Positions 739 to 5,519 of a DNA stretch of 39,741 bases are shown piece by piece. Within the stretch, counting starts at the first letter, position 1; each line of letters opens with the position of its first letter. Below the pieces are notes generated by a model. It saw only the letters and a list, made by a program, of their open reading frames with translations, made no database searches and was not told the origin of the DNA. The DNA is from Sphingomonadaceae bacterium. Its GTDB lineage: Bacteria > Pseudomonadota > Alphaproteobacteria > Sphingomonadales > Sphingomonadaceae. The stretch spans positions 1-39,741 of the forward strand of contig JAHDBR010000020.1 of NCBI GenBank assembly GCA_020630295.1, in the 5' to 3' direction. A program made the position numbers and the translations under genes.

Positions 739-785
739 CTCTGGTGATAAGTATTCCTTGTATGGAATATTTAGATCACCTAGAG
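739..785. promoter_or_regulatory. Large imperfect dyad, candidate operator of the HTH-ASCH cassette
   Basis: The left arm is CTCTGGTGATAAGTATTCC (739-757). After a TTGTAT spacer, the right arm GGAATATTTAGATCACC continues as TAGAG (764-785). The core TATTCC/GGAATA is perfect. The outer GGTGA/TCACC and CTCT/AGAG blocks also pair, with a 2-nt and a 1-nt bulge and one G-T mismatch. The dyad ends 26 bp before the GTG start of the XRE-type regulator. A weak promoter reading (TTGTAT, 17 bp, TAGAGA) would lie inside it. Autorepression by the downstream HTH protein is the obvious inference. A structured 5' leader is the alternative. Confidence 0.5.
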
Positions 786-811
786 AACCAAAAAAGGTTT
801 AGGGAACAACA

Positions 812-1603
812 GTGACACAACTACTCGGAAAAGTGATCGAAGCGTCGGCCTTGAAATCCGATCCACGTAATGAGGAGGTTGGTCCTGCTTTAAAAAAGCT
901 TAGACAAATGTCGCAGCTTACACAACGAGAAATGGCCTCGCGTTTAAGTGTTCAACAATCTGCTATATCGAAGATCGAAAAAGGCGGTGATGTTCATATT
1001 TCTACCATTCGAAAATATGTTGAAGCGCTAGGAGCTACGCTCAGAATGGGCGCATCATTCCCAGCGGAGGCTCCATTGGCACTCCATATTTGCGATGCGT
1101 TTGATATTGAATGCGGTAATGACGATCAATTTGTACTACCAATCTTAGGTGACGATGCGTTTCGTCCTCAACGTGATGTCGTATTGTCAATCCGCCCGCA
1201 CTATTCTGAACGCATTCTTGACGGTCACAAAACCGTGGAGCTAAGACGACGGTTTCCGGTGTCAGCGCCTCAAGGAACGATAGCATATATCTACTCTACG
1301 TCCCCCGTCCGGGCAATAGTTGGAATGGCCCAAATTGATGATGTTTTAAAACTGCCGATTGACAAGATCTGGGCAGATTTCGAAACAAAAGCATTTATTG
1401 AACGAGCAGACTTCGATAAGTACTTTGATGGATTGGGTATGGGTTTTGCTTTACTTTTTAAGAACGTCAGGTCATTTGAGAATCCAATACCTCTCGAGGA
1501 ACTGCGAGAGAGGTTCAACTTTGAACCACCGCAATCATTTTTATATGCGAAACAAAATCTTCGGAAGGCGTTAGAAAATGAGTACTCAGTCGTATCTGAT
1601 TGA
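812..1603 (+). CDS. HTH (XRE)-ASCH domain regulator, first gene of the cassette
   Basis: This 263-aa protein has a helix-turn-helix of the XRE/Cro type at about residues 24-78, with LTQREMASRLSVQQSAISKIE as its recognisable core. An ASCH/PUA-like domain follows at about 123-245, carrying the hallmark G-x-K-x-x-E-x-R (G138, K140, E143, R145). It resembles the family described as predicted transcription regulators with HTH and PUA-like domains. ASCH domains are thought to bind RNA or nucleotide ligands, so it may sense a nucleic-acid ligand and control its own operon. The GTG start is set by AGGGA at 801-805, six bases upstream. The 3' end overlaps the next gene by 26 bp. Codon use is AT-rich compared with lepA, which suggests transfer. 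The ligand is unknown. Confidence 0.85.
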   Translation: MTQLLGKVIEASALKSDPRNEEVGPALKKLRQMSQLTQREMASRLSVQQSAISKIEKGGDVHISTIRKYVEALGATLRMGASFPAEAPLALHICDAFDIECGNDDQFVLPILGDDAFRPQRDVVLSIRPHYSERILDGHKTVELRRRFPVSAPQGTIAYIYSTSPVRAIVGMAQIDDVLKLPIDKIWADFETKAFIERADFDKYFDGLGMGFALLFKNVRSFENPIPLEELRERFNFEPPQSFLYAKQNLRKALENEYSVVSD

Positions 1604-3119
1604 TACGAACATTCTCATTGGCCTAGAAGATAATAGTGCTGTTAAGCCTGCCTATGCCCGCTTTTCCAGTTTATCTGCAAAACACAAAGTCGAAATTTTT
1701 GTCCACGAAGCTGCACGCGATGACATCGCTCGAGACAAAAATGTATCGCGAAGAAAAATCTCCCTTAGTAAAATCGCCAAATACCAAATTTTGGCGAAGC
1801 GCAAAGGGCTAAAGCAATCAGATCTTGAGGACGAATTTGGTAAGCTTAAAAAGCCGAATGACGTTGTCGACGCAACTCTTTTGCACGCACTACAAATCAG
1901 CGCCGTCGACTTTCTTGTAACTCAAGACAAAGGCTTGCATGAGCGAGCCCAGAGAAACTCATCAGATTTAGGTCGTCGGGTTCTCTTTGTCAGTGATGCT
2001 ACCGAACTTCTCGCGACCACTTATGAGCCGAAATCAGTAGGAATTCGCCACGTCGCTGATGTCAAGGCTCATACTATCGATCACAAAGATACCTTTTTCG
2101 ATAGTCTTCGCGAGGGCTATCCTAAGTTTGACAGTTGGTGGCAAGAAAAGTGTGTGAGGCAGCGGCGGTCGTGTTGGGTCGTTTATGATGACGATCAGTT
2201 AGCCGGACTCATAGTTCGGAAAGATGAAAAGTCTTCAGACACGGATGCCAAAACTCCCGCCCAGAAAATTCTGAAAATCTGCACATTTAAGGTCAGGCCT
2301 GAGATGAGGGGGGTAAAGCTCGGCGAGCTACTTTTGAAACAAGTTTTGTGGTTTTGCCAATCGAACAGTTATGATTTAACATATGTTACTACATATGACG
2401 ACCAAGCATTGTTGATTAACTTGCTTGAATATTATGGCTTCACAAAGACTGGCGAAAAAGAAGACGGAGAGTTGATTTATGAGAGAGGTTTTTCACAATC
2501 GCGAGCAAGTACGGACGATCACGATGACCAGTTTTTACTCGCTAGGACGCACTACCCCAGATTCATCAAAAACAGCGAAACGCTTGGGTTCGGCATCCCA
2601 ATAAAAGAAGACTATCACGACACTTTGTATCCTGACTTGTGGGATCCACATCAACCGGATCTTTTTCAGGGAACCTCTGTCGCGGAGCAACCCACGCGGC
2701 CCGGTAATACCATCAGGAAAGTCTATCTTTGCCGCGCGCCTTCAAACCTTGGCCCTTCCGGATCAATTTTATTTTTCTACAAGGGCAAGTCCAATGATCC
2801 TCCATCGCAAGCGATCACGGCGATTGGCATTTTAGATGAGGTCACCCTCGCAACGTCGACGAAAGAACTAATGGTCAAGACAGGCGGTCGTTCTGTGTAT
2901 AGTAAGCAACAATTATCTGAATGGAATGCTTCCGAAACTAAACCTGTGAAGGTTATAAATTATCTTTTAGTGAACTATATAAGGCCACCTGTTGGTATAT
3001 CCGAACTTCAGGAATTAGGCGTAATTAGCGGGAAAAATCCACCTCAGTCTATTTATTCAATTCCGTCAAAATCTCTAGGCTTGTTAATCGATCGGAGTAA
3101 TTTGGGATTTGATACGTGA
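1578..3119 (+). CDS. PIN nuclease-GNAT acetyltransferase-PUA-like fusion protein
   Basis: This 513-aa protein has three parts. Residues 1-150 form a PIN-like domain: LIDTNILIGLED gives D9, VHEAARDDI gives E44 and D48, VVDATLLHAL gives D98, and TQDKGLHERA gives D117, matching the acidic metal-binding set of PIN ribonucleases. Residues 155-305 look like a GNAT acetyltransferase, with a motif A stretch VRPEMRGVKLGELLLKQVL and YGF near the end. Residues 375-513 resemble an ASCH/EVE/PUA-like beta-barrel (ILFFY, AIGILDEV). The start overlaps the upstream gene, with GGAAGG at 1563-1568, and the end overlaps the next gene in a GTGA. A PIN-GNAT fusion next to an HTH-ASCH gene suggests an RNA-targeting effector, toxin-like. 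Substrate and acetyl acceptor are unknown. The PIN call is firm, the C-terminal PUA-like call less so. Confidence 0.85.
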   Translation: MSTQSYLIDTNILIGLEDNSAVKPAYARFSSLSAKHKVEIFVHEAARDDIARDKNVSRRKISLSKIAKYQILAKRKGLKQSDLEDEFGKLKKPNDVVDATLLHALQISAVDFLVTQDKGLHERAQRNSSDLGRRVLFVSDATELLATTYEPKSVGIRHVADVKAHTIDHKDTFFDSLREGYPKFDSWWQEKCVRQRRSCWVVYDDDQLAGLIVRKDEKSSDTDAKTPAQKILKICTFKVRPEMRGVKLGELLLKQVLWFCQSNSYDLTYVTTYDDQALLINLLEYYGFTKTGEKEDGELIYERGFSQSRASTDDHDDQFLLARTHYPRFIKNSETLGFGIPIKEDYHDTLYPDLWDPHQPDLFQGTSVAEQPTRPGNTIRKVYLCRAPSNLGPSGSILFFYKGKSNDPPSQAITAIGILDEVTLATSTKELMVKTGGRSVYSKQQLSEWNASETKPVKVINYLLVNYIRPPVGISELQELGVISGKNPPQSIYSIPSKSLGLLIDRSNLGFDT

Positions 3120-3670
3120 AGCAAATTAATATCGCTGCGATTGGGATTTCAGGAGTTGGAAAAACAACATTTTTAAATGCCGTTGCAAGACGAGTTAGGT
3201 TTCAACATCTAACAGGCGGGAGCTTAATATCAGCTGCAAGGCAAAAATCTTTAGCAAACAGAGATAGCCTAAGATTGGATGATATTGCAAAAAACCAGCG
3301 TTTGCTGATCGACGGTTTTAACGCTGCTCGATCGCCAGAATATGAAGTGGCGATCTTAGATGGGCATATTCTGATAGATGCCGATAGCGAAATACAAATC
3401 ATCGATTACAAGATTTTTGAAGAGCTAAATATTGCCGCATTTTTGCACATCAGTACAACTGTCGAAAGGATTTCCTATCACCGATCTGCCGACACTTCTC
3501 GTAAGAGGCCCATCAGAACTGAAACCGAACTAGCAGAGCAACAAGGCTTGTCCGAAAACTATACAAAAAGCGCTGCCAGCGCCCTCAGATTGCCTTTCAA
3601 ACGCTTCGAACTCAAAGATGCAGACATTGCTGCGGACTTTATCACGAGAATAAAATTATCAGCGGACTAA
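3116..3670 (+). CDS. Small P-loop ATPase / nucleoside-kinase-like protein
   Basis: This 184-aa protein has a Walker A loop, GISGVGKTT (residues 10-18), and a Walker B-like VAILDGH (78-84, D82). A basic segment follows, YHRSADTSRKRPIRT (121-135), like the arginine-rich lid of adenylate-kinase or polynucleotide-kinase-type P-loop enzymes. It starts at a GTG that overlaps the stop of the PIN-GNAT gene (GTGA), so translation is probably coupled and the product is part of the same system. It may phosphorylate a nucleotide or RNA end, or act as a regulatory ATPase; the sequence does not decide. Codon use is AT-rich like the two upstream genes. Its stop lies only 31 bp from the convergent lepA stop, with no hairpin terminator in between. 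Confidence 0.8.
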   Translation: MKQINIAAIGISGVGKTTFLNAVARRVRFQHLTGGSLISAARQKSLANRDSLRLDDIAKNQRLLIDGFNAARSPEYEVAILDGHILIDADSEIQIIDYKIFEELNIAAFLHISTTVERISYHRSADTSRKRPIRTETELAEQQGLSENYTKSAASALRLPFKRFELKDADIAADFITRIKLSAD

Positions 3671-3701
3671 AGTTTTTTAGCCGAACCAAGACCGCCTGTC
3701 A

Positions 3702-5519
3702 TCACTCCTCCCCCATCCGCAGCGCGGCAATAAACGCCTCCTGCGGAATACTTACATTGCCGTATTCGCGCATCTTGGCCTTACCCTTTTTCTGCTTTTC
3801 CAGCAGTTTCTTCTTCCGCGAAATATCGCCGCCGTAGCATTTGGCGGTCACATCCTTGCGCATTGCGCTGATCGTTTCGCGGGCGATCACTTTGCCGCCG
3901 ATGGCTGCCTGTACGGGGATTTTGAACAGGTGGCGCGGGATCAGGTCTTTTAGCCGTTCGCACATACCGCGGCCCCGCGCCTCGGCCACGTCGCGGTGGA
4001 CGATCATGCTGAGCGCGTCGACCGGTTCGCCGTTTACCAGAATGCCCATTTTCACCAGATCGCCTTCGCGCAGGCCGATCTGTTCGTAATCGAAGCTGGC
4101 ATAGCCCCGGCTGATGCTTTTCAGGCGGTCGTAGAAATCGAACACCACTTCGTTGAGGGGCAGTTCATAGGTCACTTGCGCGCGCCCGCCGACATAGGTC
4201 AGGTCCAATTGCACGCCGCGCCGGTCCTGACACAGTTTCAGGATGCTGCCGAGGTAATCATCGGGGGTGTAGATCACCGCCTTGATCCACGGCTCCTCTA
4301 TACTGGCGATGCGGCTGGGGTCGGGATAATCGGCGGGGTTGTGCAGCATCAGCTCGCCCGCAGGTTCGGTCTTCGATTTGTTGAGCTGGATGCGGTACAC
4401 GACCGAGGGGGCGGTGGTGATCAGGTCCAGATCATATTCGCGGGTCAGCCGTTCCTGGATAATCTCCAGATGGAGCAGCCCCAGGAACCCGCAGCGGAAG
4501 CCGAAGCCGAGCGCGGCGCTGGATTCGGTTTCAAAGGTGAAGCTGGCATCGTTGAGGCGCAGCTTGGCGATGCTTTCGCGCAGTTTTTCGAAATCGGCGG
4601 CGTCGACGGGGAACATTCCGCAGAACACCACCGACTGGACTTCCTTATAGCCGGGCAGAGGCTCTGTCGCGCCGTTCTTCACCGTGGTGATCGTGTCACC
4701 CACGCGGGCCTGCTCCACCTCTTTGATCTGGGCGGTGATGAAGCCGATTTCGCCGGGGCCGAGTTCGGGCAATTGTTCGATTTTCGGGCGCATACAGCCG
4801 ACGCGGTCAATCAGATGCTCGGTTTCCCCGACCATGAATTTGACGTTGAGGCCTTTCTTGATGACGCCGTCAATGACCCGCACGAGGATGACCACGCCGA
4901 GATAGGGATCGTACCAGCTATCGACGAGCGAGGCCTTTAGCGGTGCGTCGCGGTCCCCCTTGGGCGCGGGGATTTTGGCGACGACTTGTTCGAGGATATC
5001 CTCAATCCCGATGCCCGATTTGGCGGAGGCGAGGACGGCTTCCGATGCGTCAAGGCCGATGACGTCCTCGATTTCCGCGCGGACTTGCTCCGGCTCGGCG
5101 GCGGGGAGATCGATTTTGTTGATGACGGGGACGATTTCGTGGTCATGTTCGATGGATTGGTACACGTTGGCGAGCGTCTGCGCCTCCACCCCCTGCGCCG
5201 CGTCCACCACCAGCAGCGCGCCCTCGCACGCGGCCAGGCTGCGCGAAACTTCATAGGCGAAATCGACGTGGCCGGGGGTGTCCATCAGGTTGAGCTGATA
5301 CGTCTCGCCATCATGGGCGGTGTATTCGAGGCGGACGGTTTGCGCCTTGATGGTGATGCCGCGCTCTTTCTCGATATCCATATTGTCGAGCACCTGCTCC
5401 GACATCTCGCGCGCGGTCAGCCCGCCCGTATGTTGGATTAGCCGATCGGCGAGCGTCGACTTGCCATGATCGATATGCGCGATAATGGAAAAATTGCGAA
5501 TTTTTGAAAGTTCAGTCAT
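3702..5519 (-). CDS. lepA: Elongation factor 4 (LepA), ribosome back-translocase GTPase
   Basis: The product is 605 aa, the usual LepA length. The N-terminus carries the G1 loop AHIDHGKST followed by [16 protein letters not shown] and NKIDLP, the standard translational GTPase motifs. The C-terminus has the LepA-specific region ending in [18 protein letters not shown] and [13 protein letters not shown]-4 acts on stalled or mistranslocated ribosomes and is peripheral to the inner membrane. I prefer the ATG at 5519; a GTG immediately upstream (5522) would add one residue but overlaps the G-rich ribosome binding site. It lies downstream of two c-di-GMP genes and may share readthrough from them. 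Composition is typical of the host, in contrast with the adjoining cassette. Confidence 0.97.

What the first reader, a model, noticed from the sequence alone, without database searches (positions are those of the whole stretch)
739..785. 47-bp imperfect palindrome before the cassette start
Nested arms (CTCT, GGTGAT, TATTCC and complements) surround a 6-bp spacer and end 26 bp before the GTG start of an XRE-type regulator. This is the position and size expected of an autorepressor operator and would give tight control of a toxic operon.
Basis: partly seen in the sequence, partly recalled or inferred. Interest (0 to 1): 0.55.

Follow-up and report, generated by a model that had tools for sequence, protein, structure and literature searches.

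The report
Self-repression switch of a defence operon
A short DNA palindrome in front of a predicted toxin/defence operon recurs before related operons in other bacteria and sits on the likely promoter, so it is most likely where the operon's first protein binds to switch its own operon off; the 47-base span first reported is too wide, and only about 20 bases are conserved.

Summary
The palindrome is real, but the functional unit is the inner 20 bp (751-770, GTATTCC-TTGTAT-GGAATAT), not the 47 bp. All 26 full-length HTH-ASCH loci examined have a dyad in the 110 bp before the gene. In 20 it is TATTCC-N6-GGAATA (10-12 of 12 positions), centred 37-52 bp before the start. The other six (two clades with different recognition helices) have different half-sites. 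None of 27 ASCH loci without an HTH reaches 10 of 12, including 12 with a gene-2 relative; nor do 12 XRE proteins without ASCH. The exact motif occurs once in the window's own genome. In 12 of 14 loci with a TTG/CTG centre, 'TA' follows after exactly 17 bp, so the dyad's centre is probably the -35 box and window 781-786 the -10 box. Best reading: the HTH-ASCH protein binds its own -35 region and represses the operon. The outer arms are out of register and not conserved. The operon (HTH-ASCH, PIN-GNAT-EVE-like, AAA_17) is a known predicted toxin-antitoxin/defence type (Bell et al. 2020; PADLOC PDC-M11). I found no description of its operator in the papers searched. Binding, repression and toxicity are untested.

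The parts
751..770 (.). core operator, GTATTCC-TTGTAT-GGAATAT, dyad centre 760.5
   Evidence: conserved columns 752-757 and 764-768 (1.35-1.87 bits) in 17 non-redundant loci; 10-12 of 12 positions in 21 of 26 HTH-ASCH loci
758..763 (+). likely -35 hexamer TTGTAT, at the centre of the dyad
   Evidence: TTG/CTG centre in 14 loci, 12 of them with TA exactly 17 bp downstream
781..786 (+). likely -10 hexamer TAGAGA (weak match to TATAAT), 17-bp spacer
   Evidence: TA at spacing 17 in 12 of 14 loci, against 0-3 of 14 at spacings 12-16 and 18-22; 781-782 are conserved columns
   Evidence: columns 739-748 carry at most 0.30 bits; out of register with the dyad by 2-3 bp
775..785 (+). outer right arm (ATCACC, AGAG); not conserved as an arm, and 781-785 overlaps the likely -10 box
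812..1603 (+). XRE-type HTH + ASCH protein (263 aa, GTG start), predicted autorepressor and antitoxin; recognition helix about residues 49-57
   Evidence: Pfam HTH_3 3e-09; ASCH 20.7 bits, just under the 21.2 cut-off; PADLOC PDC-M11B 1e-32; helix 49-57 in the model (low confidence overall)
1578..3119 (+). PIN-GNAT-EVE-like protein (513 aa), predicted effector/toxin; start overlaps gene 1 by 26 bp
   Evidence: PADLOC PDC-M11A 5e-116; Pfam Acetyltransf_1 3e-06, PIN_3 below its cut-off; a homologue adjoins the HTH-ASCH gene in 26 of 26 loci
3116..3670 (+). AAA_17 P-loop kinase-like protein (184 aa), third gene, start overlaps gene 2 by 4 bp
   Evidence: Pfam AAA_17 7e-17

Best explanation
Window 751-770 is the operator of the operon's own first protein. 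A dimer of the HTH-ASCH protein binds TATTCC-N6-GGAATA over the -35 box (758-763) of the operon promoter (-10 at 781-786) and blocks RNA polymerase, so that the HTH-ASCH, PIN-GNAT-EVE-like and AAA_17 proteins are kept low and in balance. When the repressor is titrated, degraded or altered (for example by its partner protein or by something the ASCH domain senses), the promoter opens. Shown by sequence comparison: the conserved dyad, its link to the HTH, the half-site change with HTH clade, the -35/-10 spacing. Inferred: dimer binding, repression, the inducing signal, toxicity.
For: (1) Of 26 full-length HTH-ASCH loci, 21 match 10 or more of the 12 positions of TATTCC-N6-GGAATA. After dropping three near-copies, 17 class-A loci align with information confined to 751-770 plus the TA at 781-782 and an A-rich stretch just before the start; the outer-arm columns are near 0 bits. 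(2) 0 of 27 HTH-less ASCH loci reach 10 of 12 (best 9; 10 of 1350 shuffles reach 10), including 12 that carry a gene-2 relative; 0 of 12 XRE proteins without ASCH exceed 8. (3) The operator type follows the protein tree: the 20 TATTCC loci lie on one side of a branch (96/92), four loci with TATGAC/TATGCC-like half-sites form a clade (100/100), and two with an odd-centred dyad form another (100/100). Positions at and just after the recognition helix separate the first two groups (I55 to V/L; G59 to R/K), and the third differs at Q49 (R). (4) TA at spacing 17 in 12 of 14 TTG/CTG-centred loci; non-redundant 10 of 12 against a background of 8 of 140 at other spacings, binomial about 2e-11. (5) One exact TATTCC-N6-GGAATA in the 2.44-Mb genome, this one. 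(6) The HTH is nearest to HigA/HipB-type antitoxin repressors, and HipB binds the similar TATCCN8GGATA (PMC3376134, passages).
Against: No binding or expression data. The window's own dyad is only borderline beyond chance as an ungapped palindrome (p = 0.052). HTH-less controls are also more distant proteins, so absence of the operator may reflect divergence as well as absence of the HTH; 15 of the 27 show no gene-2 relative in the stretch held, and some may be transcribed from a promoter further upstream than the 150 bp scanned. Operator type and HTH clade are confounded by descent: only two changes are needed on the tree, and long branches meet in it. The -10 (TAGAGA) is weak, and no sigma-70-like promoter passed the generic scan near here. 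Two of the 14 TTG/CTG-centred loci (L055, L072) and the TTAA-centred loci (L041, L042, L056, L057, L073) lack the TA at 17 bp.
Confidence: 0.83

Rival explanations
1. The whole 47-bp stretch acts as an RNA or DNA hairpin (attenuator, terminator or cruciform) rather than as a protein site.
For: Strong folding, z -5.2. L056, L073 and L057 have extended in-register palindromes.
Against: In most of the other loci the outer stem is absent. No terminator-like site found here, no Rfam match up to E = 1 in 560-900. With the promoter inferred here the stretch lies upstream of the transcript. What is conserved is sequence, not just pairing.
Confidence: 0.06
2. The dyad is the site of another regulator (a host factor) that happens to control these operons.
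For: Seven one-mismatch copies lie elsewhere in the genome; nothing excludes additional factors.
Against: The dyad goes with the HTH-bearing form of the cassette across several alphaproteobacterial orders and changes with the HTH clade; a host regulator would not be expected to track it.
Confidence: 0.07
3. The full 47 bp is a compound operator: a core site plus outer half-sites for a second dimer.
For: Only 16 of 5000 flank shuffles fold as well.
Against: 264 of 5000 random window flanks do; outer columns carry near-zero information in 17 loci; the arms are 2-3 bp out of register.
Confidence: 0.04

Closest known systems
HipB autorepression of hipBA (TATCCN8GGATA)
   Same: XRE-type HTH antitoxin that represses its own operon; 18-bp palindrome with similar half-sites (TATCC against TATTCC); HTH similarity
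   Different: HipB has four operator sites (PMC3376134, passages); here one exact site. Fused ASCH domain here; partner is PIN-GNAT-EVE-like, not a HipA kinase.
(PIN)-GNAT-EVE / ASCH / AAA_17 predicted toxin-antitoxin operons (Bell et al. 2020, PMC7641849; PADLOC PDC-M11)
   Same: Same three genes, including the HTH(XRE)-ASCH fusion noted there mostly in alphaproteobacteria (passages; PADLOC hits)
   Different: The paper suggests ASCH may regulate expression, but its main text has no occurrence of operator, palindrom-, inverted repeat or autoregulat-. The operator is what is added here.
GevT/GevA of Escherichia phage PhiR47_2 (GenBank PV340567)
   Same: ASCH protein annotated as antitoxin next to a protein annotated as toxin that is 30% identical over 270 aa to gene 2
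   Different: No HTH and the matched part starts at residue 167 of gene 2, so no PIN part matched; gene order toxin first. The names are the depositors' and I found no paper.

Membership tests
(PIN)-GNAT-EVE / ASCH predicted TA-defence operon (PDC-M11) | PDC-M11A-type protein | tested here: met
   PDLC04421 5.5e-116 over residues 6-501
(PIN)-GNAT-EVE / ASCH predicted TA-defence operon (PDC-M11) | ASCH (PDC-M11B) partner | tested here: met
   PDLC04425 1.3e-32 over residues 122-252; Pfam ASCH 20.7 bits, just under its cut-off of 21.2
(PIN)-GNAT-EVE / ASCH predicted TA-defence operon (PDC-M11) | C-terminal EVE domain in gene 2 | tested here: inconclusive
   No Pfam EVE hit in the window protein or in five homologues; EVE is taken from Bell et al.
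(PIN)-GNAT-EVE / ASCH predicted TA-defence operon (PDC-M11) | toxicity neutralised by the ASCH protein; anti-phage activity | not testable with these tools
   needs experiments
XRE autorepressor operator (HipB/HigA-like) | palindrome over the promoter of the regulator's own operon | tested here: met
   the promoter itself is predicted, not mapped
XRE autorepressor operator (HipB/HigA-like) | conserved with the HTH-bearing regulator and absent without it | tested here: met
   21 of 26 against 0 of 27 and 0 of 12 at 10 or more of 12; divergence is a confounder
XRE autorepressor operator (HipB/HigA-like) | direct binding and repression | not testable with these tools
   gel shift and reporter needed

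The most novel reading that the evidence does not exclude
The HTH-ASCH protein is a one-protein switch that senses modified nucleic acid: its ASCH domain binds a modified base or nucleotide appearing during phage infection, which releases the HTH from the -35 operator and turns on the PIN-GNAT-EVE effector, so that one protein is sensor, repressor and antitoxin.
Probability: 0.15. Interest if true: 0.75.

Novelty: new member of a known kind. Interest (0 to 1): 0.42.

Why it matters
It gives an uncharacterised predicted defence/toxin-antitoxin family a concrete, testable control point: a 20-bp operator on a -35 box, with half-sites that differ between HTH clades. A reporter on this promoter would let one screen for what releases the repressor, and so for what the ASCH domain senses.

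Tried and rejected
Rejected: the 47-bp unit as one operator; terminator; known structured RNA; an upstream promoter I first read by eye at 713-740 (TTGCTT/AATACT), dropped because the -35/-10 pair at 758-786 is supported by other loci. Ungapped dyad scoring alone was too weak to find the site: in 9 of 26 loci (L014, L036, L037, L042, L055, L058, L066, L067, L068) the top-scoring dyad lay elsewhere, so the motif-based scan was used; its motif comes from the window, so the window's own p value there is circular. The AlphaFold model of gene 1 is poor (mean pLDDT 53.7, four sequences) and was used only to place the recognition helix; no fold search was run on it. Viral contigs gave one relative for gene 1 and none for gene 2. 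No phage record covered 80% of the HTH-ASCH query (0 of 25 matching records).

Rows dropped before counts: L001, L050, L051, L053 and L065 are repeats of the window, L014 and L015. L036, L037 and L073 were left out of the column counts as near-copies. Of 89 plasmid records with a match I fetched only the 8 covering at least 80% of the query. The second place in the record of hit H3 was not fetched.

Full report
Observation. The inner pair is a true dyad centred at 760.5; the outer pairs are 2 and 3 bp out of register and pair only in a bulged hairpin (z -5.2). As an ungapped dyad the site is borderline against shuffles of its own upstream region (p 0.052).

Surroundings. The site precedes three overlapping genes: an XRE HTH-ASCH protein (812-1603), a PIN-GNAT protein with an EVE-like C-terminus (1578-3119; EVE by the description of Bell et al., no Pfam hit) and an AAA_17 protein (3116-3670). 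PADLOC names them PDC-M11B (ASCH half of gene 1) and PDC-M11A (gene 2); that PDC stands for phage defence candidate is recalled. Bell et al. 2020 (PMC7641849, passages read) describe these operons, including XRE-ASCH fusions mostly in alphaproteobacteria, as predicted toxin-antitoxin systems that had not been tested. A lambdoid phage record calls a related pair GevA antitoxin (ASCH) and GevT toxin.

Homologues. Searches of genomes, genome contigs, plasmids and viral contigs gave 26 distinct full-length HTH-ASCH loci including the window, all with a gene-2 homologue adjoining gene 1. Matches to TATTCC-N6-GGAATA in the 110 bp upstream: 12 of 12 in 9 loci, 11 in 9, 10 in 3, 9 in 2, 8 in 1, 7 in 2. 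The 20 class-A loci are centred 37-52 bp before the start. L023, L035, L043 and L058 (class B) carry TATGCC, CATGAC, TATGAC and TATGCC on the left and GTAATA, GTCATA, GTAATA and GTAATG on the right of a 6-bp centre, at -31 to -44. L067 and L068 (class C) instead share an odd-centred dyad, TACATCTAGTAGATGGT and AACATTTAGTGGATGTT, at -33 and -32.

Controls. 27 ASCH loci without an HTH: none at 10 or more (one at 9). Twelve of them have a gene-2 relative in the stretch held and score 6-8. Twelve XRE proteins without ASCH: none above 8. Own genome: one exact site and seven with one mismatch; the reversed pattern gives none. In the genomes of L014 and L015 TATTCC-N6-GGAAT occurs twice each, once at the cassette.

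Which part is conserved. In 17 non-redundant class-A loci the information lies at 751-770; 752-757 and 764-768 carry 1.35-1.87 bits. Columns 739-748 carry at most 0.30, and 772-780 at most 0.54 (at 774). The next conserved columns are 781-782 (0.71, 0.61), the TA of the likely -10 box. TA stands at spacing 17 in 12 of 14 TTG/CTG-centred loci, and in 0-3 of 14 at the ten other spacings. The likely start near 793 would leave a leader of about 19 bases (inference).

Covariation. On the protein tree the operator classes need two changes, the least possible; 0 of 200 shuffles are as low. This shows agreement with descent, not independent repeats. At or next to the recognition helix, class A has I/F55 and G59 (one T), class B V/L55 and R/K59, class C R49.

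Mechanism. The simplest reading is repression by occlusion of the -35 box by the operon's own HTH-ASCH dimer, comparable to HipB, which represses hipBA by binding TATCCN8GGATA (PMC3376134, passages). What lifts repression is not known. [quoted passage not shown]

Prior art. Searches for GNAT-EVE (one paper), PDC-M11 (none), ASCH with EVE/PIN/XRE, ASCH with PIN/GNAT/antitoxin and ASCH with antitoxin and operator showed, in their listings, no paper on this operator. Subscription papers, and a paper of Iyer et al. 2013 that I looked up by a recalled DOI (not held), could not be checked.

Noticed in passing
window 3670-3706 (3' side of lepA) and L081-L086: Nothing of the DNA after the lepA stop is shared with six congeners, and five of them carry cargo there that is of defence or candidate-defence type or an unassigned methyltransferase: SIR2 (L081), RloB/AbiLii (L082), Methyltransf_35 (L084, no PADLOC hit), PDC-M02B (L085), UG5-nitrilase reverse transcriptase (L086); L083 shows none. 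It looks like an integration hotspot for defence cargo.
   Followed up: partly
L082:1394-1426 and L084:1444-1463: A second, imperfect copy of the lepA 3' end lies about 75-105 bp beyond the gene in L082 (30-33 bp, 88-90%), with a weaker one in L084 (20 bp), as after integration at a gene's 3' end; no such copy was found in the window.
   Followed up: partly
L015:3861-4919 and L038:1237-1962: A separate GNAT-EVE-like gene (27-28% identity to gene 2) lies upstream of the HTH-ASCH cassette in two loci.
   Followed up: no
L056 and L073 upstream regions: The operator extends into a long, almost perfect palindrome (in L056 in-register pairs out to 18 bp from the centre), far beyond what an XRE dimer would be expected to need.
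   Followed up: no
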